Position numbers and translations under genes: made by a program. A stretch of 64,000 bases of DNA from Centroberyx gerrardi. Its lineage: Eukaryota; Chordata; Actinopteri; Beryciformes; Berycidae. Below, piece after piece: positions 10,327-60,337 of the stretch. The stretch spans positions 13,147,725 through 13,211,724 of the forward strand of contig NC_136012.1 of the NCBI RefSeq assembly GCF_048128805.1, given 5' to 3'. The notes under the pieces are model-generated. The model saw only the letters and a list, made by a program, of their open reading frames with translations. It had not been told where the DNA came from and searched no databases. The first letter of the stretch is position 1; each line of letters opens with the position of its first letter.

Positions 10327-12194
<1,868 letters not shown>

Positions 12195-21077: not shown

Positions 21078-23314
21078 TCACTGCAGCTGTGAGAGGAGGG
21101 GTGTGCAGTCTCCGACTCTGTCCAGCTCCTCCACCGCTCCGATCAGCCCTTCAACCTTCTCCGGGGGAAGCACCGCCCCTGCATTGTTCCGGAACTTCTT
21201 CCTCAGGCTCTCATTGGTCAGCGGGTTGCGCCAGTGACCGTAGAAGGTGTCACAGCGGCCCCTGAACATGTCTCCCCCGACGAGCGTCACCTGGACTTCG
21301 CCGTACATGCGATCGAAGTTGGCCGGGTTGTCCTGGGGATGCTCCACGCGAACGCGGCTCAACAGAGCCAGCAGGTCGGGGCGCCTCAAGGCAGCAGGGG
21401 AGAAGGACTGCACTGTCACCTCCCCATCCAAGAGAGCGCTGCAGGCGTTAAACTGGAAGGAATGGCGTGCCTGGTGTTCAGACTCAGGGAAAGGTCTGTT
21501 GATGTACTTGGAGTGGGGGACTCTGAGCAGGATGTCCTGGACCTGGGCAGGGGAGACGGTGCCAGACTCAATCCCGACGAGAAGCTTATGGACAGAGGCC
21601 GCGGCGTCTGCCACCCAGTGCATCCCCAGGTGGGCGGGGAAGCGCTTGAAGCCCATGTCCTGCTCCTCTAGCAGGAAGACATGGCCCTCATCCTTGGGAG
21701 ATTTCAGAGGTTGTGGCACGTAGTCTTCATAAAAGGCACTGAAGCCGGCCACTCCTGCCACCGCATCCAGGACCAGAGGACTGGCCTCGAGACCTCGGGA
21801 GGCCAGCAGAGCCGCCTCCAGCCCCAGCCGAGAAGCATTGCCGATGTGGAGGGGTTTGGACTGGGTGGCAGCATTAGCCATCGGGGCTCCAGACAGAGAA
21901 GCAGCGATGGCCAAGGCATGGCTGCACTGGGAGTGATCCAAAGACAAGAGGCGGGCACAGGCTGCTGCACTTCCCATGGTGCCAACCACACTGGGAGGGT
22001 GGAACCTGGTGATGAGAAAGACAGAAACACAGAGAGGGACAGAGAGACCTTGGTCAGATGTTTTGGTACTATTTGCTCTTGTGACTAAAGGGGCGTTTTA
22101 ACTGGGTGCACCAGCCGTCATTATGGTGTAAATATGTCTGTTGTACCCGCAACTATTCTGTGACAGAGCTCTCCGTATGCAGAGACAGTCTATTTCTGTA
22201 GTGTTAAAGGAAAAAACAGATTTTTAGTCATCTCAGTATTTTCTCAAAAAGCAAATAAAGTAGTGGGTCATTTGACTTTGTGTAAACACCTGCCAAATGG
22301 AGCCGTCAGTGATATTCCTCTCCACATGGCTAATTGTGCTAACACTACCCACAGAGCCTCTGCTATCCCCGAGAGAACACAATAACAAGCCTTTCACACC
22401 TCATTGACACCACTAAGAGACTTCACTTTACACTGCACAGGCCTCCTTGTGAACCGCAGGGATCAGCAGAGTCAAATATGGATCTCCTTAAGGACTCATG
22501 GGGCTACTTTTTCAGACATGTCAAAGGCTTGCTCCTACATGTAGAATATAAACAGCTTTATGTCCATGGAATAGGCACTTAGAGACATTGAATCTAGACT
22601 ACTGTGTGTAGGGCAAGCACACCCAAAACATCTAGACTGAAAGCTAGCTAACTTAGCTTCCTAACTTCCCTCTCCATTCACGCTCTGCGTTACTGACCTC
22701 TTGGGGATGTTGCGGGCCGCATTGGAGAACCGCATCAGTCGGCCCTGGATCTCGATGCCAACATTGAAAGCCAGCAGCAAGTCGAGGCCACTGGGCTTGC
22801 CATTTGCGGGCATCATGTCACCAATAGCTAACAGAGCAGGAAGGACTGCGCCGGAGGGATGGGTGGCAGGGTGCCACGTATCGTCAAAGTCCATGGAGTG
22901 AGCCTGCGGCAAACAGACAACAACAAAATAATTATTATTAACAGTAGCAAAGAATTATTGATAATGTTGAAAATAGTGACCAGTTTAGCATTAGTAGATT
23001 ATAATGCAACCATCAACATCAAAGCCCTAGGGTAATGTGGAGTGGATGAGGTCAATTCGGGGTTTGCACCAGCCCCTCCTGTGGTTGGCTAGTCAGGTTT
23101 CCCAAATTGTCTGGTGTTCAGGGGAAAACTGTGACACATCTGTTCCACCTATTTCTACTCACCGCCACTCCATTGACGAAGGCTGCGAGTGTCGGGGAGA
23201 GCCTGGTGCCCCTGCGTCCGTACACAGAGCTGATGTCATCAGGAGCATACACGTGCTGAGGGGAAAACACAAGGACAAAGACACATTAAATTCCAGTGTA
23301 TAAAGTCAGACTCA

Positions 23315-23355
<41 letters not shown>

Positions 23356-24855
23356 GTGAACTTTACTCTGAAAAGATTGGGCACATCACTCTTCAGCTGG
23401 TGTAGGGTGAATAAGTGTCTTTGTAAGTCATAAGTCACTCAGGGAAATCCAGGGAAAAAGGTCATCAGACAGTGGGTTATGGAGAAAAAAAAACTGTCTG
23501 TGCCCACGTTTTTATGACTAGATTTAGCATTTTCCCTTATCTTATCTGTCAGCATACAGCATTTGCACAGATTGGAGAGTACAGTTTATATAAGGTCAGG
23601 CATTTGCTTTCATCAGTCCTGTTGCCATTTAGATAAGCGTCAGAATATAATAAAAAGTTATTTGTTCTCCCCCCCTTTCCCTCCCTCTGCCTCACCTGGC
23701 AGTGCTGCAGGGCCAGTTCAAACACGTTGGTGGTGCTGCCGAGCAGGCCGACCCCGATGCTGTCCAGCACCATCCGCTTACTGCGGTGCAGCACGACGGA
23801 GGACAAGTGCTGGGGCTGCACCTCACTGATGAACCTCCCGAAGCTGCCCGTGACCGTGTCCTCAGGAGCCGGACGCTCCACGACTGCAGGAGACGAGGGA
23901 CGACGGGTGGAGGAGCGCAGTGAGGAGAAAGCGGAAGTCATAAACGGAGTAATGGAATGAGGAAAATTAGTGGAATGTTTAAAAACTGTTTCAGTTTCAG
24001 TTTATTCATAAACAGGTGGAGTAGAAGTAGAGCGTCAACATTAGCTGTATGTATAGAGTTTGCCAATATTTACAGTAAAAGCGCTGTTTCTTTATAGCTG
24101 AACCAGAGAGAAATATTTCTTTTATTCCATACAGTCTGTGTGACAGTGCAACAACCACTGTCACACAGACTGTATGGAATAAAAGAAATCTTAAAATAAA
24201 AGAAAGTTAAGTATATCAAAAGCTGAGTTTACCTTCCACTGCAGACTTGTGCACACTCCTGATGGCACACACTGGTCTAATGGTTTTCTGTGGAACACAG
24301 AGCACAGAAAGTTGAATATATTTACTGACACTTGTAAGCTACTGAGGGGAAAATCTATTGTAAAATGGTTTATTCTTTATACTTCATACTCTCACCATGA
24401 ATCTGACAGAGTAAGAGATCAATTAGAGGCAGTGGACATGTGCAATGGCTTTCTGCCTTTCTTCGTCAGACACACATCTTATTAAATCAGCCTTAATGAA
24501 TCTGCCTGTGTGCCTCTTGTGAAAGAGCCATTGTACAGGTGAGGTGGTGCTACCAGGTGTGGTAATGTGGTCAACATTAACCCAGAGCTCAGTGAAATTC
24601 ACCCCTAGAATTTAATCACAAAACTAACTGTGACGTGTCTATTTTGTGATTTTACAATTTTGTAATGAATCGTTCACTAGAGAGAATGGAAATTTCCTGC
24701 TCTAGAGATGCAGACAGTCAGTAGTTAGAGCTACAAGGAAAACCTCTGAGTCAAACAGAGGAATTTGTGCCCTTCATTGCATCAGGGTGAAATGGATCCC
24801 TATTAATCTAACTGCAAGAGATATTCTGAAGCTTTACCTGTAGCTTGGAGATCAT
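21078..24855 (-). CDS. acod1: cis-Aconitate decarboxylase (ACOD1/IRG1)
   Basis: Coding exons on the minus strand are 24838-24855, 24233-24287, 23696-23883, 23163-23255, 22698-22903 and 21078-22005; phases agree and give 495 residues. The enzyme decarboxylates cis-aconitate to itaconate in mitochondria of activated myeloid cells. It is an MmgE/PrpD fold protein. MDFDDTWHPATHPSG supplies Asp123, Thr127 and His133, KRFHPPS gives His189, and TQSKPLHIGNA gives Lys237. These equal human D93, T97, H103, H159 and K207 with a constant offset of 30, so the catalytic core has no gaps. FKRFPAHL and FYGHWR near the C-terminus are also family blocks. The first ~28 residues (MISKLQ...SVHKSAVE) are basic and probably a mitochondrial presequence. 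Some fish carry two such genes (irg1 and irg1l); I cannot tell which this is. Confidence 0.93.
23316..23353. repeat. (CA)n microsatellite in an acod1 intron
   Basis: An uninterrupted CA run of about 18 units lies between acod1 exons 3 and 4. Confidence 0.9.
24115..24189. repeat. Perfect 34-bp hairpin inside an acod1 intron
   Basis: Arms 24115-24148 and 24156-24189 are exact reverse complements with a 7-base loop (CAACAAC). It lies 44 bases from the donor of acod1 exon 2 on the transcribed side. A transcript would fold into a 34-bp uninterrupted stem. No coding content. Confidence 0.95.
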
Positions 24856-25050
24856 GGCTTCACTGTGGTGTTTCTGCAGTTGTGTTGCTTTACGCTGTTC
24901 TCTCTTCTGTAGTCTGTTTTGGCTTCTGTCCTCTTGTTGGTTTCTCCTCCTCTCTTTTGCCCACTGCCTGTCTTTTCTGTGTTGATGCAGAAGTTAGCAG
25001 TCAAGAAGTGGTGAAGGATGCTGATGTTTTTCAGGTGAGAGGCTGCCTGC

Positions 25051-25058
25051 CTTATATA
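25051..25058 (-). promoter_or_regulatory. acod1 TATA box
   Basis: On the minus strand the sequence reads TATATAAG, about 195 bases upstream of the acod1 ATG. A start some 30 bases downstream would give a 5' UTR of roughly 165 bases without needing an extra intron. Confidence 0.7.
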
Positions 25059-25139
25059 GCCCAGGACTGACAAAGGCTACTGATACTGACCTGGGAGGAA
25101 CAGGAAAGGGCAGGCGTATCCATCACAAATGTTCCAATT

Positions 25140-25216
25140 AAAGGGAGGGATTTCCACAGTGGTCACCATCATCATCATCACCATCATCAGAGGAGGAGGA
25201 GGAGGAAGAGGAGGAA
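25140..25216. repeat. (ATC)n and (GAG)n simple repeats in the acod1 upstream region
   Basis: Runs of CATCATCAT and GAGGAGGAGG lie between the two divergent start regions. The purine-rich strand could adopt unusual structure. Confidence 0.85.
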
Positions 25217-25286
25217 GCTGATTGTCAGAGGCGGTGAGGTGAGAGGCGGTGATGTCATTTCTCAGGTGGCAATTAGGTAAGTGTTG

Positions 25287-25302
25287 GGGAATTTTCACGG
25301 AA
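25287..25302. promoter_or_regulatory. STAT (GAS) motif overlapping a kappaB-like motif
   Basis: TTCACGGAA at 25294-25302 fits the STAT consensus TTCNNNGAA exactly. GGGAATTTTC at 25287-25296 is close to the kappaB consensus with a weak 3' half. Both sit between the acod1 TATA box and the predicted exon of the divergent gene. Motifs this short occur by chance; the value is in the location next to an interferon/NF-kappaB-type target gene. Confidence 0.45.
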
Positions 25303-25326
25303 CTCCTCCTACACCAAGGATAGGCA

Positions 25327-25396
25327 TATTTATGACAAACTTACAAATCTGCTTCAGAACAACTCAACTCTTCATCCCTCTGAGCATCTTCACCAG
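25327..25396 (+). promoter_or_regulatory. Predicted promoter and 5' UTR exon of the transporter-YrdC gene
   Basis: A TATTTA box-like word at 25327-25332 is followed about 30-65 bases later by an exon ending CTTCACCAG with a strong donor (GTAAAGC) at 25397. A ~1.1 kb intron would lead to the first coding exon at 26518. If right, this gene and acod1 start about 330 bases apart in opposite directions. Exon extent is inferred. Confidence 0.45.
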
Positions 25397-26517
25397 GTAA
25401 AGCCTTGCTTACTTTTTTTCCCCCACCTACTTCACTACCGGCTATCACAATGCCTACTGAATATATTTTGCATGCAAGTTTCAATATGCTACATTACTGG
25501 TGGTGATAATAACAGGTTTTTCATATGTCAGCTTGATATGTGAATATTACTTTACATTATGCTACAGAATAAATCTTGCTGCTCTAGGCAAGATTATTAT
25601 TGTTATGAAAAGCTGTTATTTGCCATATTAACATGAATACATTGACTACCAAACCTACAATTTAGAGAGGTTGAAACTGACTCATAAACATTACCTTAGT
25701 ATGCTGTGCATCTCTTTTGGCTTGATATCAGTGTATTAGTTCCAGCTGAAAGGCTTAGGCAGAAACCTGCTCCTGCTCCTTTCAAATTACAGCAGTAAGG
25801 CTGAATACAGCCACCTGTGTGTTTCTCTGTGTCTCTTGCCACTGTCTCTCTACAACAATGGATCATGAAAGCCGGCCCTCCTGTTACTGGGCAGGGCCAG
25901 ACACTGACAAGTTTCTGTAAATGCTTAGAGTGATAAAACAGAAAAAAATGAGCCTGACGGAGTGAGAATTTATTAATGTCAAGCTCAGTTATTACAACCT
26001 AACCATATTTTCTGCCCTTCATTATTCATTTGCTATTAATTTTTATCCTATTTTCTGTTTGTATAATTTTCAAAAATCTTTGCATATAGAGGGCGCTCAG
26101 GTCATTTTGTTCACTGTAGTAAAGCTTTCCAGGTTTGTCATTAAAGTATTTTTCTGAGGCACCAAACAGGCCATGTTGCTGTTTCCTACCACAAATAACA
26201 TTTGCCAGTGACTTCACTCTGCACATGAATTTATTTGACTGTAGTGCATTTGTAAATTTGTAACATAGCCATACTCATATGTCCCTTTGGCAAATAGATT
26301 ATAGCAATAAATTAGCCAGGATCAAGACAGTATACTGCTCTGAGTTGGTCTGTTGGATGATTCATATTATATTGCATTATAGTCTCAACGAAAGATATAC
26401 AGACTGCATATATACATTTGAATTGCAAATTTGTTGTCTGTGCCATTTGTTTCATTGCTTCATCTGCCCATTGTTTCAGCTGAAAAAACAAACCTATAAT
26501 TTGACAACGAAGACACT
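25397..26517 (+). other. Presumed first intron of the transporter-YrdC gene
   Basis: No coding exon or clear repeat is visible. A pyrimidine/acceptor signal (CCATTGTTTCAG) ends at 26479, which could mark the start of the coding exon that includes the ATG at 26518. Confidence 0.4.
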
Positions 26518-29500
26518 ATGGCAACACCAGATGGTTTTCCAGCCAGTTTCTATGGCGAGCCAGGAGTGCTAGGCATGTTAGCCAATGGGATCAGTGCATT
26601 CCTCGTACTTCTACAGAACTTCAATACAGCACACACTGGCATCGCACCAGTGGGGGTGGAGAACATCCTTGCAGGTAAAACTTAGAACAAATATAGTATT
26701 TTCATTACATTTCAGTTTTTTAACCTGTGCATTGTTTCGCTTGCCTACACATGAGCTGACAGCTACCAACCAAGAACATTGTGATCCTTGACATTTAAAC
26801 ATTTAAACTCAAATACAATTTTGAATGCATCCAATATGTTGGCTATAATCTTATTGGCATAAGGATTGTTCATGTTTGCCTTACAGTAACTTACTCAACA
26901 ATGCTTTTGCAGGTGTTCACCTCATCCTGATTGGCGGTATATGCCAAGTGGTAGCCGGCCTGCTCTCCTTCAGAAAATACGATCATCTGAGTGGCACTTC
27001 CTTCATGGGCTATGCTGCTCTCTGGGGCAGTTATGGTGCCACCCGAATCTACTTTGGTGCAGTAACTGAAACTCCCACTACAGTACTCCTACCCCATGAG
27101 ATGATGAACAATATGTCTCTGTCCACTAACCTGATGAGCAACATGTCTCTGAATGCCACTACAGACACCCCTGTTTGCCTCTCATGTCTGTCCCTAAAAG
27201 AGTCGGCCATCTCTGGTCTGGTACCCTATATCCTTCTCTCTTTTCTCCTTGCTTTCTGCTCCGCCACAGTCAACTTCATCATGCCTTTTGTTTTTGGGGC
27301 GATCACAGCCACCTTAGTGTTTGAAGCAGTGGCTCTGGTGGCCACCTCATGGGCTCTCGTGGTCTCTGGGGTCCTGGAGTTTCTCATCCTGATCTTTGCC
27401 ATCTACGGCTCGGCTGCACTGCTTGTCAAAGGCCTGACTCAACGTCTAGCCCTCAAGGGCTTTGGGACCCCCCTCTTCAATGTCCTCCTGCTAGGGACCA
27501 CCAACGTAACAAGTGCCCAGAACATTGGCCAGGAGAAGAAGAAGAACACAAAATATGCAGAGCCAATGGCCTTGGGTTTCTTCTGTGACACTATTGCTTC
27601 CTTCATCTTCGCTTTCTACAGCTTTGGGTACATTAAGTCCTTTGCCTTAGGAGTTGCATGGGTCTCAATCATCATTGCTGCCCAGCTGTTCTCCAGCTAT
27701 TATGCCCATCTGCGGCAAGATTGCTACTACACCACAAAGTTTGGTCTTCATGCTACATATTGGCTGATCAAGGCTTGGGGTGAGTTTGTGGCATCTGTTC
27801 TGATTGTGGAAGACAGTAAAGTGGCCTCTGGGAGGGAACCAATGGTGGGCGATTGGTTCTTTGTGGTGGCAGCCTTGGTGCTCTGCGTGGGAAGCCTGAA
27901 CACAGATACCCTGGAACTCATCCACAACATGCTGTTCCTCCTGCTCACAGTCTCCACCATCCCCCAGATCCCTCTCCAGGGATACTATATCTTCTTTGGT
28001 GTGGCCTGTTCCCTGTTCACCGCAGTCTCCCTCTATGGCACCTTCTCTCGGCTCATCAACACCATAGCAGAGAAGTCCCTGATCCCCGTAGGCCCCCAGC
28101 CCGTCTCCACCAGCCGGCTTCAGAAGGCTCTGAGTTGCGGCAGGTCCAAAGGGAGAGACCAGGGGGCGCTGCTCCATGCTGAACAGACCCCAGATGCACT
28201 GTTCTACCTTTGCAATGGGGTGGCAGCTCTCTCAGCACTCCATGCAAGTGCGTCCAGCATGAACTCCTTCTTCCTCCATCTGACTGTCCCTTGGGTCCTC
28301 ATCTCTGGAGCCATCATCCAGGCCTATGTCAGCCGGCTGCAGGTCACAGGAGGTGGGCGCTTTGGGTCAGTCATCCCGTCCTTCTATGTAGCAGTATGGG
28401 CAACCTGGACCTGGTTCAGATTTGCAGGTATGTCTGTAAAAATTTGAAATTAGAAGATAGATTTGTTGACTGAATTTCATTAATTAAGTAAATTAAATAG
28501 ATTTAATTATTATTATTCTTCCAGGTGACCTGCTCCAGTTTTCCACAGAGGCAGCTTATGGCTTTACAGCGGGAGCAATTGCTTTCCTGGTCATTAATGC
28601 TTTCCTCATGCTGATTGGTAAGGTTAATTCGATTCTTTATAATAGAGCAACAAATTATTTTGTTTGTTTTTCAGCTAATGGTCTTATGCTTCTTCCATGG
28701 TTTCTGTCAGCTGCATATAGGAACCTGGTTTTGCTGTTTCTAACAACAATCATGGAGATCGTATTGGTCTGTTTCCTGCTCTCCACCCTGCAGCGACTGC
28801 CATACCAACTAGAAAGTAAGGATGGATTAAGTCTAGTCCCAAACTCATAATTTCCACTGAAATAGACTGTTACATCTAGAATTATATTTACTTTTAATCT
28901 CTATCTACACTAGCCTTTCAGTTACTAAAATATTGTGAAATTATTTTCTTTACAGTGGCCATGCTTGCAATCTTTTCAATAATCTGTGTATATGGAGCGC
29001 TGGCATCATTGGTAAACTGCATCTTCTCAGAGAGACTGCTACCTATGGGCCCACCCTTATTAAAGGTGACTTACTGAGAGACCCATATTCTATTTTATTC
29101 TATTCTGTTCTGTTGTGTTTTGTTCCTTTAATGACAATCTCCCTCCATCTATGGCCTGTCTCAGGAAGTGAAAAAGCAGGAGAAAACTCCAGAACTGCCA
29201 TGTCCTGTGGCTGACTCCCGACTTACCAGCAGTCTTCTGAAGATCGCTAGCCTACTGGAGGAAGGCGGGGTGTGTGGTATTCCCACTGATACAGTGTACG
29301 CCCTGGCTGCCTCCTGCAAGAATCCCCAGGCTATCGAGAAGATCTACAACATTAAAGTAAGATTGAAAATAAGCGGCTAGTTGGTGCCACTTTGTATTGT
29401 AATGTGAGACAGATCTATGGAACAACAGCTGTATCACGATAGGCCTCACTATCGACGTCAAACTCATGAACCTGTTGTCTGTGACCTTTTCCAGGACAGA

Positions 29501-30579
29501 CCGGCGGAGAAGCCCATCTGCATTTGCATCTCCAGCGTGGAGCAGCTAGTGGCAGCCATGCCTCCCTTCAGCCCTCTGCTCTGGGAGTTTATGAGGAACG
29601 TGTACCCTGGAGGCATCAGCTGCATCGTCAGCAAAGGAGACTGGCTGTTCAAACTAGGTAAAGAGGCCATGGCTGCTGCGATCGAACACCTATTTGCTGT
29701 ACTAGCGGATTCAGTTTAGAACATCCTTAGCTTACCTTAAAAATGGCAGCAGCTACAAGCATTCACTTCACTTTTTAATTTTAGGCGTGGGACCAGCTTA
29801 TGACCGCGTTGGTACCAAGGACAGCATCATGATCCGCGTCCCTGACCACACTGTGACCGGGCACCTGTGTGACATCACTGGACCCCTTGCCATTACCTCA
29901 GCCAATCCCAGTGGAGAGACAGACAGCACCCACCACAGCATGGTCATCAGGTAAGCGTCTCCTCACAGAACTCCACTGTACGCAAGTCCTCAAGCATGTC
30001 TCTTGCTATTCAACTGACCCACTATTACACCGTGTCATGTTTCAGTTTGGAGGAGAGATTCATAAAGTTTGATGCTGGGATAATTCCAAAAGAGTGATGC
30101 ATTCCTGAGGCTTGTATTGGGGCAGAATGATCTGATCTGACCTATGATACAGGATTTAATAAATCCTCTTACAGCAAATTAATTTTAGTGTGTCTAGTGT
30201 ATCAGAGTGACAAATGTGTGGTTTATCAGTCTATTATAGTATATTGGTAATCGTGGATGACATGCACATTCATTTATCCTCTCTTCTACCATCTATTTTT
30301 GCTGCAGTCGACTGGGACACAAGATCCAGGGGGTTCTGTGTGACGGAGACTCTAATGAAGTGGTGGCCTCCACCGTGGTTAACTGCCTGAAGATCAATGA
30401 AGGTACAATGCAAAATCTTTACCAGTAAATCGTCTTTGTTCCTTTGTTTTAACAAGCACTATCTCATTCAAAACTATGTTTCTATTTCCACAGGGACCAT
30501 AACCATTGTGAGAGAAGGCTGCGTTCCTGCAGTAAAAGTCCAGCAGATCTTTGACAGAGTGAAAAGCACTATGCTGTGA
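26518..30579 (+). CDS. Three-module Gpr1/Fun34/YaaH-like membrane protein fused to YrdC/Sua5 domain
   Basis: Ten coding exons: 26518-26674, 26913-28427, 28525-28617, 28675-28815, 28956-29065, 29165-29356, 29495-29657, 29785-29950, 30308-30402, 30494-30579. All phases agree; 905 residues. Residues ~10-260 open with EPGVLGMLANGISAFLV and GGICQVVAGLLSF...SGTSFMGYAALWGSYG, the acetate/succinate channel signature. The pattern recurs at ~266-465 (EPMALGFFCDTIASF) and ~478-670 (DALFYLCNGVAAL, then GGRFGSVIPSFYVAVWATW). An early loop has three N-glycosylation sequons (NMS, NMS, NAT). Residues ~673-905 form a YrdC domain: GIPTDTVYALA, KDRPAEKP, IRVPDH, ITSANPSGE, VASTVV. YrdC enzymes make threonylcarbamoyl-AMP for tRNA t6A; here the usual Gly of YGL is Ala. 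I know no named function for this fusion. A convergent paralogue lies at 42865-46914. Confidence 0.88.
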
Positions 30580-34197: not shown

Positions 34198-34818
34198 GAT
34201 TGATAAGATTGATTGAGAGAGCAATATATTGACAAATGTCTTCAGAATTATTTTCTGTGTGTTCTCAATAATATGCCAGTTAATGCATATCCTATGAAAT
34301 ATTATCCCTTATGAATATTTTGATAACAAAAATCTTAATCAGTCATACTATTTGTAAATATAATCAAGACATAATCAATCTAATAGGAGGTAAATATTTT
34401 TTTCTGGTACCTCACCCTGAGAGCACTTGAGAGATACACCGATGTATACAATGATAGAAGCAAATCATTAACAAATAAAAATAGGCTCATGAGGAAACTC
34501 CCTCCACTAAGTAACCCATTACCAGGAGAAGCTTCATAGAATACATAAAGGGGAAAAACTGGTGTCAATAAGGTGAAATATTAACCATTGCTTTCTGTTT
34601 CCTTATATGTTGCATGCTGTAGATAAACCAATCATAAATAAACAGCTGGTTACAAAAGAGTGAATTATCATCTGATCCTATTTGAAATTTTCATGTGCTT
34701 CCTCAAGGAGGGGGCACATGCACAAACTGCACGCACATGCACACACACACACCCACACCTGCACACACTCATGAACTTGAGCACAGTAGCAGAGTGTTAG
34801 CCCAACCATCATCATCAT

Positions 34819-35214
34819 CTGACATTTTATCATGCCTGCTATTACTCATGTTGGTTTTGATAACACTCCAGCATGGAACATGATTACAGACATTGATTAT
34901 AGACGACTTTTCTATGAAAGCAAATAAGGGCCATAAAACTTGAATTTTAACAGCCACTGTATACATAATGTTGAATTTTAAACACCGCTGAATTCATAGC
35001 ATTGAAATATTTTACTTTGAAAACCATGTATCTGATAGTCATGATTATATCACTAAACAGAGCAAGTTTTTTCACTTGTTGTCACAGTGGACTGACGTCC
35101 CACCTACTAGGAACAACAACAAGTACAGCCATCCACATTGTTTCAATCATTTTTCATGCTGGAAATATCATCAAAAACAACATGAGTAATAGCAAGCATA
35201 ACAAAATGTCAATC
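34819..35214. repeat. ~395-bp foldback with ~65-bp imperfect inverted ends
   Basis: The left end TGACATTTTATCATGCC...ACTCATGTTGG is mirrored by AACATGAGTAATAGCAAGC...AAAATGTCA on the right. The same arm recurs at about 36897 and 41088 (forward) and 39705-39770 (inverted), five copies in all within 7 kb. Consistent with a small non-autonomous DNA transposon. Confidence 0.7.
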
Positions 35215-35317
35215 AACCTTGTGTTGTGAAATGTGTTGTTCATTCTGTGGAAACCTGTGTAGATGGACACAAACAAAAGAGCATCACTCTTAGGACGAAA
35301 TTTCAATTACACTCCCT

Positions 35318-35418
35318 TTTTCAGAATGACTCAATTACATTCCCTTGTTCAGAATAACTCAATTACACTGCCTTGCTCAGAATAACTCAATTACACTCCC
35401 TTGTTCAGAATAACTATC
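35318..35418. repeat. ~28-bp minisatellite (CAATTACACTCCCTTGTTCAGAATA type)
   Basis: About four units with scattered changes. The duplicated block at 39863-39945 holds about three, so the number changed after duplication. Confidence 0.8.
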
Positions 35419-35695
35419 TAATGTCTGACACACCTTTCTTAGTAATCTAAAAGAAAATAATTGCATCATGTATGAAACAAGTTCATGGTTTTATTCCCAA
35501 GAGCTTTGGGATCTCTGATCTTTAAAGCAGATACTTTTGCACTCTGGATGAGTGGTAGAACGTAAAATCACAAGACAGAATAACAGAATTTATTTTGCAA
35601 CATTTGCACAATGTTCGCAACATCTGGGCTCCCAAGGACAGGCTAGGCAATCAAGCCTGAATGCAATCATGCCGCTTCTGGCCTATCAGAGCACG

Positions 35696-36723
35696 TTGTT
35701 TTACGTTTTCAGTTGGAAGGACCTTGTGCTGCGCAAGTTCAGCACCTCCAGTCGCAGACTACAGCTAATGCATTTTCTACTTAAGGTAACTTTTATGTAA
35801 GCTTGTGTAGGCCTAAATAACATTGTTATCGTGTGCATACTGGCCACTGACTGGCGTAATTATTTGGTATATGCAAATCCATGAAAATCCATGCCCCTGG
35901 GAGAGTGTTCTTTTTATTTAACATTCAGTCCGCAAATACGAACACAGCGAGATTATTTAGATATTTTGTCTGTGTTGTCAATTTGCTGTGACCTCGTTAT
36001 GTGTTACCTTATGTGTGTTTTGAGTAAAACATTTCGGTCAATGTAAAACGTGCGTGTCCTTGCATTTATTTACACCTAACTTAGCTAAGTGATTTCTCCT
36101 TGTGTTTTTAGTCAGATTATTAGGAAAGCGACGAGAATTCACTATTTTTTTGATTTTTTTTCTTAAAGATTTCTCCTGGGGAGCATACCACCGAATGGTT
36201 TCACTATGCACGACTACGTTGCCACTTGCCAGTAATTTGGTGCCCCTCCGCTATAAGCCTCTTGCCCCCCCTGGATATTTGTTCTAGCGCCGACACTGAG
36301 CCTAAGTCATTATAATGAGAAACTTTTTCAAAATAATGACTTAGTACCGGTATCTCAAAATAATGAGAAACGGTCTCAAAATAATGACTTAGTATCTCAA
36401 AGATACTAACTCATTATTTTGAGGTACTAACTCATTGTTTTGAGATACTAAGTCATTATTCCCGCGGTGATGTAGTAGGCTAATACTCACCACCTGTCAG
36501 ATTGTTTTTCGAATTCGAAGCCTCCGATGTAGAGCACTAGTGGAGTCTGTCCGAAATATTTTCAAAGCAGGCTGTAAGTTGGCAAAATAGCGCGTCAGCT
36601 GACATGCATTTTTTTTTTTGTGTGGATTTGACAGAGTGAGAAATAGGAGGTGTGGCGTGAGAGCGTGTGAAGAGAGTCATTTGTGTGAGTCTCACGCTCA
36701 GTGCGTGAGAGTTGGCAGCTCTG
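35696..36723. other. Unit-1-specific sequence between blocks C and B
   Basis: No coding exon is supported. It includes a palindromic repeat region at 36300-36465 listed separately. The corresponding position in unit 2 (40227-40912) has different sequence. Confidence 0.5.
36300..36465. repeat. Palindromic element built from TCAAAATAATGACTTAGTA words
   Basis: Forward words CAAAATAATGACTTAGTA on the left are mirrored by TACTAAGTCATTATT on the right. The core at 36375-36423 has 23-base arms with one mismatch and a 3-base loop. The structure resembles a MITE. No coding content. Confidence 0.85.
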
Positions 36724-38038
36724 ATTTCTGTGTCCTACCATATACGCAGGTTTCCTCAGAATGATCAAGGCATGACATTTCACAACACAAGGATGTTCAT
36801 GCCAGTAACTTCAATGACCATATTAAGCTAATATCATACATCCTGCCAGCTTCCGTGTAACATACTGATTACTGCAGCAGGTACAGTAGAGGTTGACTGA
36901 CATTTTATCATGCCTGCTATTACTCATGCTGGTTTTGATAACACTCCAGCATGGCACTAAAACTTGGAACTGAAACAGTGTGGATGGCTGTAGGCTACTT
37001 GCTCCTGCGGGACATTAGCCCACTGTGACTTAAGTAGTAAAATAACTGTGCTCTGTTTATTGATATAATCATGACTAGATGTTATCTTTAATGAAGTAAT
37101 TACTGATGCAAGTCTCCAACTTGTATCAGAGAACAGGCAATACTTGTACTACATGAGACAATTGACAAGGTTTGATTACAAAACCTCTGATGCAGTCAGT
37201 GTCAGGTCAACTAACATTTCACCTTTACAAAGAACAAAAGCAGAAAAAGTCCATATAACGTGTCTCGATAAATTAAAACAGCCTCTTTCCAGAACACGAG
37301 ATCTTCTTTGTGATTGATAAGATTGATTGAGAGAGCAATATATTGACAAATGTCTTCAGAATTATTTTCTGTGTGTTCTCAATAATATACCAGCTAATGC
37401 ATATCCAATGAGATATTGTCCCTTATGAATATTTTGATAACAAAAATCTTAATCAGCCATACTATTTGTAAATATAATCAAGACATAATCAATCTAATAG
37501 GAGGTAAATATTTTTTCCTGGTACCTCACCCTGAGAGCACTTGAGAGATACACCGATGTATACAATGATAGAAACAAATCATTAACAAATAAAAATAGGC
37601 TCATGAGGAAACTCCCTCCACTAAGTAACCCCTTATCAGGAGAAGCTTCATAGAATACACAAAGGGGAAAAACTGGTGTCAATAAGGTGAAATATTAACC
37701 ATTGCTTTCTGTTTCCTTATATGTTGCATGCTGTAGATAAACCAATCATAAATAAACAGCTGGTTACACAAGAGTGAATTATCATCTGATCCTATTTGAA
37801 ATTTTCATATGCTTCCTAGAGGAGGGGGCACATGCACAAGCTGCACGCACATGCACACACACACACACCCACACCTGCACACACTCATGAACTTGAGCAC
37901 AGTAGCAGAGAACAAGATGCTCAGTGATGTTCTGGTCTCAGTGTGAGACATCAACACACTGTCTGAGAATGTGGATGATGGTTGGGCTAACAGGAAAGAC
38001 ACATGGACCTGTGAGACGCATGCATGTAAATACACTCA

Positions 38039-38040
38039 CA

Positions 38041-38081
<41 letters not shown>

Positions 38082-38130
38082 ACACACACACACACACCCA
38101 TGCATGCACAAACACACACACACAAACAAA
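38039..38130. repeat. (CA)n microsatellite
   Basis: Long CA run with GACA and TGCA interruptions. Open frames across it on both strands are compositional. Confidence 0.9.
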
Positions 38131-38814
38131 CACATTAAAACCCTATTAAACCACAGTCTAGCACACACTGCTGTGACAGGTTAGTCTGAGGTCCAGAGTG
38201 CGGATATCCTCTCAGTCTATTCCCACTTCGCTCTACAGGCTGTTAGTCACTCTGGTTAGCAGTGTGAGGAGAATAAACTGTAGCCTTCAGTCCGGCCAGC
38301 CTGTGGATTAGGTGACTCCCTAAGAAGAAATGACAACAGTACTGTAAGACAAGACCCTGTGCTGGCCTGTGTTGGTTCTTGATTCCCAAGTCAAGCTACA
38401 TTCATATCAGAAAAGACTGAGGTTCCATCATAAGTATTTCTGGCACCACTTGATTTGGATAGTCCAATGTTGATCCTCAACTATTAGGCCACAAAATGTA
38501 GATGTTCAACAAAGGGTCACTTGCCTATTTGCTGCATCTCTACAGACTATGTAACCCTAACCATGACCCCATTTTTTAGACAACAAACAGTGACATATCC
38601 AAGATGTATGAGTGAACTGGTTTCTGATTTGACAGATTATAAGCAATATGCAAGACATATAAACAATAACAAGAACATGAACCAACCCTCAGTTCTATCA
38701 ACTCCTACCCAACCTTCACATACGCATTAACCCTTCCCACCCAAATTCCCAAATTCCTCCCACTGGCTATGGGAAAGTAAATATTAAGAGGAAAAAAATC
38801 TAGTTGTCTAGCAT

Positions 38815-39411
38815 CTAGTTGTCATCCGGGTGAATGATAGCCTTGTTCAGATACTCAATAAAGGGCTTCCAGGTCTTGTCAAAGGATTTACTGGAGTCTG
38901 TAAGTGAAAATCTAATCTTTTCAAGTTTGATGTGATTTAGGATCTCCTTGAGCCAACTATTGTGTGAGGGGGGAAGAGCATGCTTCCACTTAAATAAAAT
39001 GAGGCGCCTAGCTAGGAGAGTTGTAAAGGCCAAACCACGCTGCTTTATTGATGGGAAATTGGGTGCTGCAGGTGGTGGGACTCCAAATAGGGCCGTGAGA
39101 GGTTCAGGGTTAAGGTTCATACCGAACACTGTCCCAAGTGTGTTAAAGATTTGACGTCAGAAATCTGTTAAATTTGGACAGGACCAGAACATGTGAGTAT
39201 GGTTAGCGGGTGACTGTTTGCACCTATTGCAAATATCACTGGTATCCGGATAAATGTTCGCCAATCGGGCATTTGTATAGTGTACTCTGAAAAGAACCTT
39301 ACACTGCAATAAGCCATGTCTAGCACACATAGAAGCTGAGTGGACTAGATCAAGGAGTTGGTCCCACTGGTTGTCAGGTATTGGCACACCAATTTCCTGC
39401 TCCCAACCCAT
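38815..39411 (-). mobile_element. L1-type LINE ORF2 C-terminal fragment, minus strand
   Basis: Two minus-strand frames, 39411-39157 and 39129-38815, encode the C-terminal part of fish L1 ORF2. They include LVHSASMCARHGLLQCKVLF, the zinc-knuckle-like CNRCKQSPANHTHMFWSCPN and LLARRLILFKWKHALPPSH. The frame changes once between them, so the copy is dead. Nothing of the reverse transcriptase or endonuclease core is present. It sits exactly where unit 2 departs from unit 1. Confidence 0.85.
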
Positions 39412-39417
39412 TTTTTA

Positions 39418-39440
39418 TCCTAACCCTAACCCTAAAATGA
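39418..39440. repeat. Short telomere-like (CCCTAA) patch
   Basis: Two to three CCTAAC/CCCTAA units lie between the L1 fragment and the start of block C in unit 2. Very short, but at a rearrangement junction. Confidence 0.55.
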
Positions 39441-40226
39441 ATCCTAACACAGACATTGATTATAGACGACTTTTCTATGAAAGCAAATAAGGGCCATAAA
39501 AACTTGAATTTTAACAGCCACTGTATACTTAATGTTGAATATTAAACACTGCTGAATTCATAGCATTGAAATATTTTACTTTGAAAACCATGTATCTGAT
39601 GGTCATGATTATATCAATAAACAGAGCAAGTTTTTTCACTTGTTGTCACAGTGGACTGACGTCCCACCTACTAGGAACAAGTACAGTCATCCACATAGTT
39701 TCAATCATTTTTCCCGCTGGCAATATCATCAAAAACAACATGAGTAATAGCAAGCATAATAAAATGTCAATCAACCTTGTAATGTGAAATGTGTTCATTC
39801 CGTGGAAACCTGTGTAGATGGACACAAACAAAAGAGCATCACTCTTAGGATGAAATTTCAATTACACTCCCTTGTTCAGAATAATTCAATTACACTCCTT
39901 TGTTCAGAATAACTCAATTACACTCCCTTGTTCAGAATAACTATCTAATGTCTGACACACCTTTCTTAGTAATCTGAAAGAAAAGAATTGCATCATGTAT
40001 GAAACAAGTTCATGGTTTTATTCCCAAGAGCTTTGGGATCTCTGATCTTTAAAGCAGATACTTTTGCACTCTGGATGAGTGGTAGAACGTAAAATATAGC
40101 ACAAGACAGAATAACAGAATTTATTTTGCAACATTTGCACAATGTTCGCAACATCTGGGCTCCCAAGGACAGGCTAGGCAATCAAGCCTGAATGCAATCA
40201 TGCTGCTTCTGGCCTATCAGAGCACG

Positions 40227-40912
40227 GTCTGTCAGCGGCAAAAGTCTTGCTTTTTTTTTACCTTCCCATTACGGTTGATTATATAAGTATTATTACTATA
40301 CAAGCAAGGAGAAGAATGAGGAGATTTTGACATTGTTTGGACATCAGATTTTTAACTCCCCATTACGGTTGATTATATAATCATTATTACTGTACAGGCA
40401 AAGAGAAGAATGAGGAGATGTTGACATTGGATATCAGATATGCCTAGAGAATATGACCTATGATCAAGGAAATGCCACTAATATGAAAAGCACTTTTTGG
40501 AAGGCAGAGGCATGATGGATCCTGATGTCCAGTAACCATAAGGTGGTTCGAAATGCAAGTTGGTGGGAACAAATTGTAATAAAGGATAAGGTGTCTGGCT
40601 TCACAAATAGCACCAAATTCTGGTCATTGTGGTCACTCTAATATTTGTAAAATAAATTCTGTTAATTCTGTCTTGTGTTACATTTTACGTTTCTACCACT
40701 CATCCAGAGAGCGAAAGAATCTGCCCACAAAGCTCTTGGGAATAACACCATGATGGTGCCGTCTGGCCTGTTTCATATGATGGAATGCTTTTCTTTGATC
40801 TTACTAGGAAAGGTGTGTCAGACATTTAACAATTAATCCGAGCCAGAGAGTTTATTTGAAACTTCGTCCTGTGAGAGAGTGTGAAGAGTGACGCTCTTAT
40901 TGCTTTGTTTTT
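40227..40912. other. Centre of unit 2 with a 95-bp tandem duplication and inverted block-C partner
   Basis: CCATTACGGTTGATTATATAA occurs twice about 96 bases apart with the following ~90 bases conserved. From ~40640 the sequence is the reverse complement of block C (for example TCTTGTGTTACATTTTACGT), making a large stem with 39,950-40,140. No gene. Confidence 0.7.
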
Positions 40913-41212
40913 ATTTCTGTGTCCTACCATATACGCAGGTTTCCTCAGAATGATCAAGGCATGACATTTCACAACACAAGGATGTTCATGCCAGTAACTT
41001 CAATGACCATATTAAGCTAATATCATACATCCTGCCAGCTTCCATGTAACATACTGATTACTGCAGCAGGTACAGTAGAGGCTGACGGACATTTTATCAT
41101 GCCTGCTATTACTCATGTTGGTTTTGATAACACTCCAGCATGGCACTAAAACTTGGAACTGAAACAGTGTGGATGGCTGTACTTGCTCCTGTTGGGACAT
41201 TAGCCCACTGTG

Positions 41213-41591
41213 CATAGGCGGACAACGGGCCCCTGGGCACAGATACCTACTAAGGCCCCCCGCGCTACCACAACAAGAAATTATTGCAACAAGTAAACGG
41301 CACAAGTATACGCAGAGGCAATTGGACAATATCACCTGAATCTTAACTCAGGATTTACAGCTCAGTTTACACACTCAAAGCCAACAGCACGTTAGAAACA
41401 AAACAAATGTTTAGGTTATTATAGGGGGGATTTGGGGGCTTTGGTGTTGATATAAATGACTAAGCCCTTTGACTGCAGGGCAGTAAATGTAAAGTTAGTG
41501 ACAGCATCGTCATGTATCAGGCTCTGGCTTAGGGGCACCCCTAAGCATTGGGCCCCTGTGCCCGGTTGGCCCGTTCAGTAATCCATCCATG
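41213..41591. mobile_element. 379-bp hAT-like non-autonomous element with 8-bp target duplication
   Basis: The insertion is flanked by CCACTGTG at 41205-41212 and 41592-41599. Unit 1 has the uninterrupted site once at 37020-37027, an empty-site comparison within the same window. Ends are CATAGGCGGACAACGGGCCC on the left and, read inward, CATGGATGGATTACTGAACG followed by GGGCC-rich sequence on the right, partly complementary. An 8-bp duplication fits the hAT superfamily. No transposase frame. Confidence 0.88.
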
Positions 41592-41886
41592 CCACTGTGA
41601 CTTAAGTAGTGAAATAACTGTGCTCTGTTTATTGTTATAATCATGACTAGATGTTATCTTTAATGAAGTGAATTACTGATGCAGGTCTCCAACTTGTATC
41701 AGAGAACAGGCAATACTTGTACTACATGAGACAATTGACAAGGTTTGATTACAAAACCTCTGATGCAGTCAGTGTCAGGTCAATTAACATTTCACCTTTA
41801 CAAAGAACAAAAGCAGAAAAAGTCCATATAACGTGTCTCGATAAATTAAAGCAGCCTCTTTCCTGAACATGAGATCTTCTTTGTGA

Positions 41887-48509: not shown

Positions 48510-49142
48510 GTGAGACTATCTACACACAATATCTTTACACCTGTTATCGAAACATGGCAACTTTAGCAACATTGTCATTCATACTTTACAGAGGAAGAAA
48601 CATTGAACACATGTTGAACATAGACAAAACTCTTGTGATGAAACACGAGGCACCATTGTCTTTGCATGAGTGAAGCTGTGTAAAGTTTGTGAGAAGCTCT
48701 ATTTTAATTTGTGTCTGCTTACACACCCACTGTAAGTACTGCTTACTGATTCACACCGGTGGGGTTTTTGCACAGAAGACTCCAATCTCTTCCTGTTTAG
48801 CTTGTGTTTACTGAGGCCTTTCTGCGTCAGCGATGTGTTACCTGGCAGCTGCACTGCTGTGGGTTTTCTATTACCTGGCTTTGTAAATGTTTAATATTAA
48901 CATGAGCAGCAGGTGGCTGATGAATAGTGCTAAGTCATGCTAATATTTCCCTCACTGCTGAAATCGGGAAATGAATGGGTAACCAACACTTTATCTATGA
49001 TATGAAAGTAATGAGAACTGATAGTCATATTTGCATATCGTTACTCACACTAAGAGCACAACTGCCTTTTGTGCACCTCCTATTACTTCTCTTGGAAAGA
49101 CTCCAGATGTCTAAATGTGTGTGTGTGTGTGTTACAGGAACC

Positions 49143-50385
49143 ATGGTGAAGCGTGTTGCAGTTATTCTCTCAGGCTGTGGAGTGTATGATGGCACAGAGA
49201 TCCATGAGGCATCCGCTGTCCTGGTCCATCTGAGTCGCGCTGGAGCAAAAGTAAGACACCTGGACACCTAGTTACAGAAGAGAGACAATGACCATTACAA
49301 TGAACTTACTGTATTATCTTACAAGCTGTCAGGATTTTCCCCAGTCCCATTTTTAAGCTCTTTGTGCTTTGAATGGAGGCCAGGCTCAAGAGCTTGCACA
49401 CCGTCTACTTTTATTTCCAATTATTTCAGTGAACCAGAGAACTGTGATTTAATTAAATGGTAATCTGGCCCCACTGAGATACACTTGGCCTCCATAACAG
49501 CTCTGGTGGGACTCCAGCCCCACACACCTAGCTGCGGAAGCTGCTGGTTCATCCGACCCACATAGAAACTTTTACTTATTTGCGTTTCATCTCCCTCCTG
49601 ACCCTCCCAGGTGCAGATGTTTGCTCCTAATGCAGATCAGATGCACACTGTAAATCACTGCGAGGGGAAACCCACGGAGGAGAAGCGAAACATCCTGCAG
49701 GAAAGCGCCCGCATCGCCAGGGGGGCTGTGACCGATCTGGCCAAGCTGGACGTTGCAGCATTTGACGCCGCCATCATTCCAGGTGAGATCGGACTCAGAC
49801 TCAGCCATAAAAGACAGTATGACGTTGATGTACAGCTTTCACCTCCACTTTTGTAATATGCTAAAAGAATCCTCCTTGTATGTGTTTTTATTCAGGGGGC
49901 TTCGGTGTGGCGAAGAACCTGAGTGACTGGGCAGTAAAGGGGAAAGAGTACACCATCCAGCCCGATGTAGAGAAGCTCATCAAGGCCTTCCACAAGGCTG
50001 GCAAGCCCCTGGGCATGTGCTGCATCTCCCCTGTCCTGGCCGCCAAAGCCCTGCCTGGCTGCGAGCTCACCGTGGGCCAGGATAAAGAGTGTGAAAAGTG
50101 CGTGGCATTGTGATTAACGGTCAATGATCAGAGTATTGAAACGTGCGATTTACAGTCCTAACTCTCCCTTTCCTTATCCTTCCTATCAACAGATGGCCGT
50201 ATGCCGGGACGGCCAGTGTCATGAAGGAGATGGGCTGCAAACATGTGAACAAGAACGTCGGGGAAGCGCACGTCGATGTCAAAAATAAGCTGGTCACCAC
50301 CTGTGCCTTCATGTGCAACGCTCCCTACCATGAAGTTTTTGATGGAGTGGGTGCCATGGTTAAAGAGGTGCTGAAACTGGCTTAG
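49143..50385 (+). CDS. gatd3: ES1/GATD3-like protein (ElbB family, DJ-1/PfpI superfamily)
   Basis: Exons 49143-49250, 49611-49782, 49896-50097 and 50193-50385 give 224 residues, all in phase. The sequence follows bacterial ElbB and vertebrate ES1 from end to end: [17 protein letters not shown] at residues ~7-23, [59 protein letters not shown] and [10 protein letters not shown]. Cys136 in GMCCISP aligns with the nucleophile-elbow cysteine of ElbB (FMCIAP). Fish ES1 is known as an abundant mitochondrial protein of cones; this copy starts directly at [11 protein letters not shown], with no presequence, so it is probably cytosolic unless an upstream alternative exon exists. ElbB-type proteins have been linked to glyoxalase-like activity. 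Symbol is by homology; it may be a paralogue rather than the cone gene. Confidence 0.88.
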
Positions 50386-51064: not shown

Positions 51065-52056
51065 TACACTGAACAAAAATATAAACGGAACACTTTTGTT
51101 TTTGCTCCCATTTTTCATGAGTTGAAATAGAAGATCTAAGACTTTTTCTATGCACACAAAAGGCTTATTTCTCTCAAATTTTGTTCACAAATTTGTTTAA
51201 ATCCATGTTGCCAAGATAATCCATCCACCTGACAGGTGTGGCATATCAAGATGCTGATTAAACAGCATGATTATTGCACAGGTTTTGCCTTGGGCTGGTC
51301 ACAATAAAAGGCCACTCTAAAATGTACAGTTTTTAATCACACAACACAATGCCACAGATGAAGTGTGCAATTGGCATGCAGGAATGTCCACCAGAGCTCA
51401 TGTTGCAGCATGATAATGCACGGCCCCATGTTGCCAGGATCTGTACACAATTCCTGGAAGCTGAAAACATCCCAGTTCTTGCATGGCCTGCATACTCACC
51501 AGACATGTCACCCATTGAGCATGTTTGGGATGCTCTGGATCGGCGTGTACGACAGCGTGTTCCGATTCCTGCCGATATCCAGCAACTTCTCACAGCCATT
51601 GAAGAGGAGTGGACCGACACTCCACAGGCCACAATCAACAACCTGATCAACTCTATGTGAAGGAGATGTGTCGCACTGCATGAGGCAAATGGTGGTCACA
51701 CCAGATACTGACTGGTTTTCAAAAAATGCATATCTGTAGCCCTAGTCATGTGAGATCCATAGTTCAGTGCCTAATAAATGTCTTTATCATGCACATTTTA
51801 GAGTGGCCTTTTATTGTGACCAGCCCAAGGCACACCTGTGCAATAATCATGCTGTTTAATCAGCATCTTGATATGCCACACCTGTCAGGTGGATGGATTA
51901 TCTTGGCAAAGGAGAAGTGCTCACTAACACGGATTTAAACAAATTTGTGAACACAATTTGAGAGAAATAAGCCTTTTGTGTGCAGATCTTTTATTTCAAC
52001 TCATGAAAAATGGGAGTAAAACCAAAAGTGTTGCGTTTATATTTTTGTTCAGTATA
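51065..52056 (+). mobile_element. Internally deleted Tc1-like transposon with ~240-bp inverted repeats
   Basis: The ends read TACACTGAACAAAAATATAA and its complement, and the similarity continues ~240 bases inward (for example AAACAGCATGATTATTGCAC is mirrored near 51845). TA flanks both ends. Between them a plus-strand frame at 51349-51660 encodes the last ~100 residues of a Tc1 transposase: HDNARPHVAR, WPAYSPDMSPIEHVWDALDR and a normal ending. The final Asp and Glu of the DD34E triad are present; the DNA-binding region and the first catalytic Asp are missing, so the copy is non-autonomous. Confidence 0.93.

Positions 52057-60282: not shown

Positions 60283-60337
<55 letters not shown>

What the first reader, a model, noticed from the sequence alone, without database searches (positions are those of the whole stretch)
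26518..30579. Triple acetate/succinate-channel-like module fused to a YrdC/Sua5 domain
Seen: one 905-residue model with three repeats of the Gpr1/Fun34/YaaH pattern followed in frame by a YrdC domain, through ten in-phase exons. Known: Gpr1/Fun34/YaaH proteins are single-module (six-helix) channels forming oligomers in microbes; YrdC/Sua5 makes threonylcarbamoyl-AMP from threonine, bicarbonate and ATP. Inference: a pseudo-oligomer channel in one chain tied to a carboxylate/bicarbonate- and nucleotide-binding domain could be a regulated monocarboxylate or bicarbonate channel. I know no described vertebrate protein of this design.
Basis: partly seen in the sequence, partly recalled or inferred. 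Interest (0 to 1): 0.88.

Follow-up and report, generated by a model that had tools for sequence, protein, structure and literature searches.

The report
Fish carboxylate channel beside itaconate gene
A fish gene joins a triple copy of a microbial-type small-acid channel to an ATP-using enzyme domain and sits next to the gene that makes the immune acid itaconate, which makes it a candidate itaconate transporter that can be tested.

Summary
Ten exons at 26518-30579 (+) with GT-AG introns encode 905 residues: 18 inferred membrane helices (3 x 6) and an in-frame YrdC domain (Pfam E 1.8e-36). Module 1 is a Gpr1/Fun34/YaaH (AceTr) member above Pfam's cut-off; modules 3 and 2 are placed only through profile chains. 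The design is no longer undescribed: PMC13316224 (iScience, June 2026) reports vertebrate Ato proteins with three modules plus Sua5/YrdC, absent from mammals.

Found here: (1) a second fusion gene in the window (46914-42865, -), and no third in the own-genome search; (2) an ACOD1 (itaconate synthase) gene head-to-head with copy 1, start codons 1,663 bp apart; (3) the hydrophobic gate Phe, present in 80 of 80 enteric and 11 of 11 other bacterial SatP relatives, is Asn/Asp/Asn in copy 1; (4) copy 1 keeps the YrdC K-x-R pair, copy 2 does not. In zebrafish, irg1l rises together with a gene labelled YrdC-domain.

Best reading: an infection-induced carboxylate channel serving ACOD1, most likely passing itaconate (0.4). 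Transport, catalysis and the itaconate link are inferred, not shown.

The parts
26518..30579 (+). Copy 1: ten-exon gene, 905 aa, three AceTr modules plus YrdC domain (exons 26518-26674, 26913-28427, 28525-28617, 28675-28815, 28956-29065, 29165-29356, 29495-29657, 29785-29950, 30308-30402, 30494-30579)
   Evidence: splicing; Pfam
26518..27529 (+). Module 1, residues 1-258; gate residue N23 at 26584-26586 in place of SatP F17
   Evidence: Pfam PF01184 E 2.6e-7; hhalign to SatP profile E 1e-6, 0 of 30 shuffles as good; gate
27530..28141 (+). Module 2, residues 259-462; gate residue D278 at 27587-27589
   Evidence: hhalign to module-3 profile E 5.6e-6 over 188 columns; gate
28142..29053 (+). Module 3, residues 463-668; gate residue N487 at 28214-28216
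   Evidence: hhalign to copy 2 module 3 E 2e-9; alone against SatP profile not significant; gate
29252..30519 (+). YrdC/Sua5 domain, residues 702-886; K736 and R738 of the K-x-R pair are split by the exon 6/7 junction
   Evidence: Pfam PF01300 E 1.8e-36; PDB threonylcarbamoyl-AMP synthase 9d3h E 1.9e-19; residues
42865..46914 (-). Copy 2: nine-exon second fusion gene, 870 aa (exons 46914-46860, 46130-46017, 45885-44209, 44117-44018, 43928-43780, 43681-43569, 43459-43370, 43281-43159, 43056-42865); K-K-Q in place of K-x-R
   Evidence: Pfam PF01184 on its big exon E 6.2e-4, 19.9 bits, below the cut-off of 25
21078..24855 (-). ACOD1/IRG1 (cis-aconitate decarboxylase) gene, six coding exons, 495 aa, head-to-head with copy 1
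24856..26517 (.). Interval between the ACOD1 and copy 1 start codons; TATA-like element at 25053 and a kappa-B-like GGGATTTCC at 25147 on the ACOD1 side
   Evidence: one such site, 0.01 expected, but eight patterns were tried

Best explanation
Copy 1 is a vertebrate Ato-type transporter: three six-helix AceTr modules in one chain with both ends in the cytosol, and a threonylcarbamoyl-AMP-synthase-like (YrdC) domain hanging from the last module. Two chains, either two of copy 1 or one each of copy 1 and copy 2, make a six-module ring like the SatP hexamer. It is switched on together with ACOD1 in infection or inflammation and lets a carboxylate, most likely the itaconate that ACOD1 makes, cross the plasma or phagosomal membrane; the hydrophobic Phe gate of acetate channels is Asn/Asp/Asn here, which would suit a more polar or larger acid. 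The YrdC domain binds ATP and a small carboxylate or bicarbonate on the cytosolic side and either gates the pore or chemically uses what passes. Shown: gene structure, domains, charge pattern, gate and K-x-R residues, ACOD1 adjacency. Inferred: substrate, membrane, ring, regulation in this species, catalysis.
For: Triple AceTr plus YrdC architecture and N-inside charge pattern in both copies. ACOD1 head-to-head, start codons 1,663 bp apart, E 6e-165 to a solved cis-aconitate decarboxylase with the recalled active-site residues in register; only two ACOD1 loci and two fusion loci were found in 779 Mb. Gate Phe replaced by N, D, N under four alignment settings; PMC13316224 section 8 says that gate changes alter activity and specificity and that L219A in yeast Ato1 lets cells grow on succinic acid. 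Zebrafish: irg1l listed beside si:ch211-153b23.4 (labelled YrdC domain-containing protein-like) and .5 among the top 50 genes in Shigella sonnei infection; same WGCNA module as .3 and .5; up together with .4 and .5 in one exposure; correlations 0.90, 0.88, 0.86 with .4.3.5 over 18 conditions, next gene outside the top five 0.62, 62 genes compared. Copy 1 keeps K736 and R738.
Against: No transport, binding or localisation data. Zebrafish data are another species; orthology to these copies was not tested, and the correlation table holds only genes already called as altered. sult5a1 (0.91) and si:ch211-207n23.2 (0.90) correlate with irg1l as well, so co-induction is not special to these genes. 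Main-text searches of two other zebrafish infection papers that report acod1 found no mention of the fusions. Adjacency may reflect shared regulation only, and linkage was seen in one genome. Copy 2 modules 1 and 2 could not be placed in the family, so a six-module ring with copy 2 is unproven. Mouse macrophages move itaconate by MCT1/4 (abstract of PMC12658120), so a dedicated channel is not required in principle. Copy 2 upstream region shows no kappa-B or AP-1 match.
Confidence: 0.4

Rival explanations
1. A general acetate/monocarboxylate-proton channel, or one that shifts pH, whose place next to ACOD1 is chance or only reflects shared inflammatory regulation.
For: Characterised family members move acetate and other small carboxylates; C. 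albicans Ato1 is an acetate-proton symporter (abstract of PMC13316224). Module 1 keeps Pro9, Leu12, Gly13, Tyr72 and Trp76 of SatP.
Against: The gate Phe is replaced by polar residues in 3 of 3 modules of copy 1; ACOD1 adjacency and zebrafish co-induction.
Confidence: 0.25
2. The enzyme is the point: a membrane-held threonylcarbamoyl-AMP synthase or acid-adenylating enzyme in the cytosol, fed by the channel with bicarbonate or a carboxylate, used in inflamed cells for tRNA modification or for making a modified acid.
For: YrdC domain complete by Pfam (E 1.8e-36), with K-x-R, PTDT, TSAN and STVV segments in copy 1; PMC13316224 suggests that the fusion could couple import to metabolic use (passage).
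Against: A separate YRDC-like gene lies on C12, so ordinary t6A does not need it; copy 2 has lost the Arg of the pair.
Confidence: 0.15
3. A decayed transporter kept as a scaffold or sensor: the pores no longer conduct and the chain signals through the YrdC domain.
For: Modules 2 and 3 of copy 1 and modules 1 and 2 of copy 2 have drifted far from SatP; the AceTr signature is only partly kept.
Against: Open frames, GT-AG splice sites, charge pattern and helix spacing are kept in both copies at low identity, which suggests selection on the membrane part.
Confidence: 0.1
4. Two adjacent genes wrongly joined by the first reader's model (a channel gene ending before exon 6 and a YrdC gene after it).
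For: No transcript was available; a possible alternative last exon with its own AATAAA lies at 30046-30163.
Against: Copy 2 shows the same order and in-frame joins; the same fusion is reported for almost all vertebrate sequences examined in PMC13316224.
Confidence: 0.03

Closest known systems
Vertebrate Ato proteins fused to Sua5/YciO/YrdC (Ghasemi et al., iScience 2026, PMC13316224; outline, sections 8 and 14 and passages seen)
   Same: About 900 aa, three Gpr1/Fun34/YaaH six-helix domains and a C-terminal Sua5/YrdC domain; two vertebrate clades; absent from mammals
   Different: The paper's main text does not mention itaconate, ACOD1, IRG1, synteny or zebrafish. New here: both copies beside ACOD1, gate residues, and loss of the Arg of the K-x-R pair in copy 2. 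Whether copies 1 and 2 are its two clades was not tested
Bacterial SatP (YaaH), succinate-acetate channel
   Same: Six-helix fold family; P-x-x-L-G start and Y...W in TM3 of module 1; LPxG-like module ends in modules 2 and 3
   Different: Single module: open frames of 188-231 aa in the 12 of 200 sampled genomes with a match; Phe gate; no YrdC domain
YrdC/Sua5 threonylcarbamoyl-AMP synthases (PDB 9d3h, 6f89, 2eqa, 1jcu)
   Same: Whole domain aligns; copy 1 keeps K-x-R
   Different: Attached to a membrane channel; canonical YRDC-like gene is separate on C12
MCT1/MCT4 as itaconate transporters in mouse macrophages (PMC12658120, abstract and outline seen)
   Same: The job proposed here: itaconate across plasma and vacuolar membranes during infection
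   Different: MCTs are SLC16 major-facilitator proteins, another fold (recalled); itaconate transport by the fish protein is untested

Membership tests
AceTr / Gpr1-Fun34-YaaH (PF01184) | Profile match above the curated cut-off | tested here: met
   Module 1 only: 30.9 bits against 25; copy 2 big exon 19.9 bits, below the cut-off
AceTr / Gpr1-Fun34-YaaH (PF01184) | Six helices per module, three modules in copy 1 | tested here: met
   Hydropathy and charge, helix ends adjusted by me; modules 2 and 3 placed by profile chain; no structure model could be made
AceTr / Gpr1-Fun34-YaaH (PF01184) | NPAPLGL signature at TM1 | tested here: inconclusive
   Copy 1 reads EPGVLGM, EPMALGF, TPDALFY: Pro9 and Leu12 kept in 3 of 3, Asn8 in 0 of 3
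AceTr / Gpr1-Fun34-YaaH (PF01184) | F-L-Y hydrophobic constriction | tested here: not met
   F17 position is N, D, N in copy 1; Y72 position Y, H, Y; L131 column not stable between alignments. PMC13316224 shows that some Ato proteins also depart here
AceTr / Gpr1-Fun34-YaaH (PF01184) | Carboxylate transport | not testable with these tools
   Needs expression and flux assay
YrdC/Sua5 TC-AMP synthase (PF01300) | Whole-domain match | tested here: met
   Copy 1 Pfam E 1.8e-36, profile 2-178 of 178; PDB E 1.9e-19. Copy 2 PDB E 6.6e-19
YrdC/Sua5 TC-AMP synthase (PF01300) | K-x-R pair (role in ATP binding recalled) | tested here: met
   Copy 1 K736-D-R738; copy 2 K-K-Q, so not met there; five printed PDB sequences have K-x-R
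YrdC/Sua5 TC-AMP synthase (PF01300) | Makes threonylcarbamoyl-AMP | not testable with these tools
   Needs enzyme assay
Vertebrate Ato-Sua5 fusions (PMC13316224) | About 900 aa, triple Ato module, C-terminal Sua5/YrdC | tested here: met
   905 and 870 aa, same order; for copy 2 only module 3 and YrdC are placed by sequence
Vertebrate Ato-Sua5 fusions (PMC13316224) | Falls in one of the two vertebrate clades of the tree | not tested
   No vertebrate protein collection was on hand
Itaconate transporter (function class) | Moves itaconate across a membrane | not testable with these tools
   Only indirect evidence: adjacency, gate residues, zebrafish co-induction

The most novel reading that the evidence does not exclude
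Non-mammalian vertebrates carry an inflammation-induced itaconate module: ACOD1 makes itaconate, and the two neighbouring Ato-YrdC genes build one heteromeric six-module ring (copy 1 plus copy 2) with a polar-gated pore for itaconate, one complete and one Arg-less YrdC domain reading or using ATP and bicarbonate on the cytosolic side. Mammals lost the ring and rely on transporters such as MCT1/4.
Probability: 0.2. Interest if true: 0.88.

Novelty: new member of a known kind. Interest (0 to 1): 0.6.

Why it matters
The protein design has been in print since June 2026 but without a known job. ACOD1 next door, gate residues unlike those of acetate channels, and co-induction with irg1l in zebrafish give a concrete and cheap hypothesis: these could be itaconate channels of fish and other non-mammals. 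If true, it would name a transporter for a central immunometabolite, suggest why a channel is fused to an ATP-using enzyme domain, and mark a step that mammals lost. If false, acetate or pH control by an animal Ato would still be a first function for this family.

Tried and rejected
Rejected: (a) a joining error of two genes, since copy 2 repeats the order and the fusion is published; (b) the fused YrdC as the genome's only t6A enzyme, since a separate YRDC-like gene lies on C12; (c) more fusion genes elsewhere: none found beyond the two in the window (only the best candidates are scored, so this is a lower bound); (d) a mitochondrial presequence on copy 1: its first 16 residues hold no Lys or Arg, whereas ACOD1 starts with a basic stretch; inference only.

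Led nowhere: PF01184 against the own genome gave 0 matches, exons being searched one by one. phmmer of the membrane part against PDB found no SatP, only one match at E 0.21. hhalign of single modules was mostly uninformative. Copy 2 modules 1 and 2 stayed unplaced. Promoter motifs (eight patterns): on the ACOD1 side one kappa-B-like site against 0.01 expected; single AP-1 and STAT sites, palindromes counted on both strands, not far from chance; upstream of copy 2 no kappa-B or AP-1, one STAT-like and one C/EBP-like site near or below chance. Two zebrafish infection papers (PMC10846535, PMC9858863, passages only) name acod1 but not the 153b23 genes in the main text. YrdC with itaconate gave two papers, unrelated by title and abstract start; Fun34 with zebrafish two, likewise; a four-term search was swamped by ACOD1 papers. 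Five of 80 enteric SatP proteins plus 11 others went into the SatP profile.

Rows dropped: of 66 genes in the zebrafish table, one search used 55 (irg1l and 54 others) and one search added 8; three with missing values (tfr1b, hbbe1.2, fkbp5) were left out.
Full report
What is there. The window lies in a genome of 779 Mb in 278 contigs, C16:13147725-13211724; gene content suggests a ray-finned fish (inference). Pfam places YrdC at 702-886 (E 1.8e-36) and Gpr1_Fun34_YaaH at 12-98 (E 2.6e-7, above the cut-off); the other two modules are not seen by Pfam.

Are there three modules? Hydropathy gives 18 segments in copy 1, one of them inside the YrdC domain. For the topology count I left out one segment between modules (231-249), shifted one, and added TM3 of modules 1 and 3 by hand, which makes 18; in copy 2 I shifted three of the 17 membrane-part segments and added one. 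With the N-terminus inside, K+R number 27 of 219 loop residues inside and 5 of 139 outside in copy 1; 20 of 164 and 5 of 109 in copy 2. These counts lean on my helix ends. Three of four N-glycosylation sequons of copy 1 fall in one outside loop and one inside; in copy 2 two of three fall outside. By profile, module 1 matches 16 bacterial SatP relatives (E 1e-6) and copy 2 module 3 does too (E 3.1e-7), each with 0 of 30 block shuffles as good; copy 1 module 3 alone does not (1 of 30 as good) but is homologous to copy 2 module 3 (E 2e-9). Module 2 matches SatP weakly (E 0.0088, 0 of 30) and the module-3 profile end to end (E 5.6e-6, 188 columns, score 42.4 against a best of 19.1 in 15 shuffles). 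Modules 1 and 2 of copy 2 do not: 28 and 27 of 30 shuffles score as well.

A second copy and ACOD1. On the minus strand, 46914-42865, nine exons encode a second fusion of 870 aa, 35% identical over 394 columns that span module 3 and YrdC. The two genes converge, stops 12,286 bp apart. A search of the own genome with copy 1 gave 15 matches: ten for copy 1, four for copy 2, one exon on C12; the C12 locus reads as an ordinary YRDC-like gene (by eye). Left of copy 1, reading away from it, is a six-exon gene for cis-aconitate decarboxylase: E 6e-165 to PDB 7br9, with the Asp, Thr, two His, Lys and Tyr that I recall as its active site identical in the alignment. The start codons are 1,663 bp apart. 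The genome has one other ACOD1 locus, on C10, 57% identical over the last exon; no fusion match was found on C10.

Residues that speak to function. The narrowest constriction of the family is the FLY element (PMC13316224 section 8); F17, Y72 and L131 is its SatP numbering as I recall it. F17 is Phe in 16 of 16 proteins of the profile set and 80 of 80 enteric proteins, five being in both sets, many closely related. In the fish modules it is N, D, N (copy 1) and I, N, S (copy 2), the same under four alignment settings. The columns for copy 2 modules 1 and 2 are not trustworthy, since those modules have no significant match. Y72 is Y, H, Y in copy 1; the L131 column is unstable. A polar ring in place of a hydrophobic gate argues for a permeant other than acetate; the paper notes that mutations of FLY residues alter activity and specificity and that L219A in yeast Ato1 allows growth on succinic acid. 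In the YrdC domain the K-x-R pair, seen in the five PDB sequences printed, is K736-D-R738 in copy 1, K-G-R in the C12 gene and K-K-Q in copy 2.

Expression in zebrafish. These are other authors' data on another species; orthology was not tested. si:ch211-153b23.4, labelled YrdC domain-containing protein-like, and .5 follow irg1l in the gene list of the top-50 heat map of Shigella sonnei-infected larvae (PMC6980646, section 7 read). irg1l.3 and .5 are hub genes of one module (PMC11140123, passages); irg1l.4 and .5 are listed as up together in one PFOS exposure (PMC9228135, passage). In 18 conditions of PMC8877790 (section 33 read) irg1l correlates with .4.3 and .5 at 0.90, 0.88 and 0.86; sult5a1 (0.91) and si:ch211-207n23.2 (0.90) are as high, the sixth gene is at 0.62, and 62 genes were compared. 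The table holds only genes already called as altered. That these genes are the fish fusions rests on the YrdC label for .4 and on my recall for .5; what .3 is I do not know. Two other zebrafish infection papers (passages only) name acod1 but not these genes.

How it most likely works. A chain with three modules gives half of a SatP-like six-module ring; PMC13316224 proposes that two chains close it (section 14). Two co-located, unequal copies leave a 1+1 heteromer open. By charge the YrdC domain lies in the cytosol. Itaconate made in mitochondria must cross further membranes to reach bacteria or neighbouring cells; in mouse macrophages MCT1/4 do this (PMC12658120, abstract). The fusion is a plausible non-mammalian counterpart, since mammals lack it. 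The YrdC domain may sense ATP and bicarbonate, or adenylate or carbamoylate a substrate. Shown: sequence, charge pattern, neighbours. Inferred: substrate, membrane, ring, gating, catalysis.

Novelty. The paper's main text has no occurrence of itaconate, ACOD1, IRG1, synteny or zebrafish. In the held library, YrdC with itaconate occurs in two papers that look unrelated from title and abstract start, and irg1l with YrdC only in PMC6980646. In those searches I found no statement of the ACOD1 link; subscription papers and preprints are not held.

Noticed in passing
30046-30163 (+): A possible alternative last exon after exon 8: acceptor, in-frame end SLEERFIKFDAGIIPKE-stop, and AATAAA at 30158; it would drop the C-terminal part of the YrdC domain.
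   Followed up: partly
54655-55373 (-): Phytanoyl-CoA dioxygenase-like exons (PhyH E 9e-6 on the exon at 54655-54960). [quoted passage not shown] identity with this gene was not tested.
   Followed up: no
34198-41886: Between the two convergent fusion genes, a tandem duplication of several kilobases, most blocks repeated at about 4.2-4.6 kb spacing and 93-99% identity.
   Followed up: no
48975-49271 (+): Exon reading [27 protein letters not shown]..., which I recall as ES1/GATD3-like; no Pfam match.
   Followed up: no
59639-62474 (-): Coiled-coil exons; one gives a weak match to the NEMO CC2-LZ profile (E 8.1e-5, below the curated cut-off), perhaps an ABIN/TNIP-like NF-kappa-B regulator.
   Followed up: no
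5683-7368 and 10806-11093 (+): A RING-finger gene (RNF6/RLIM-like by recall; zf-RING_2 E 7.9e-14) and a glyoxalase-domain exon (E 2.8e-5).
   Followed up: no
51337-51660 (+): Fragment of a Tc1-type transposase by recall (DDE_3 E 1.2e-10).
   Followed up: no
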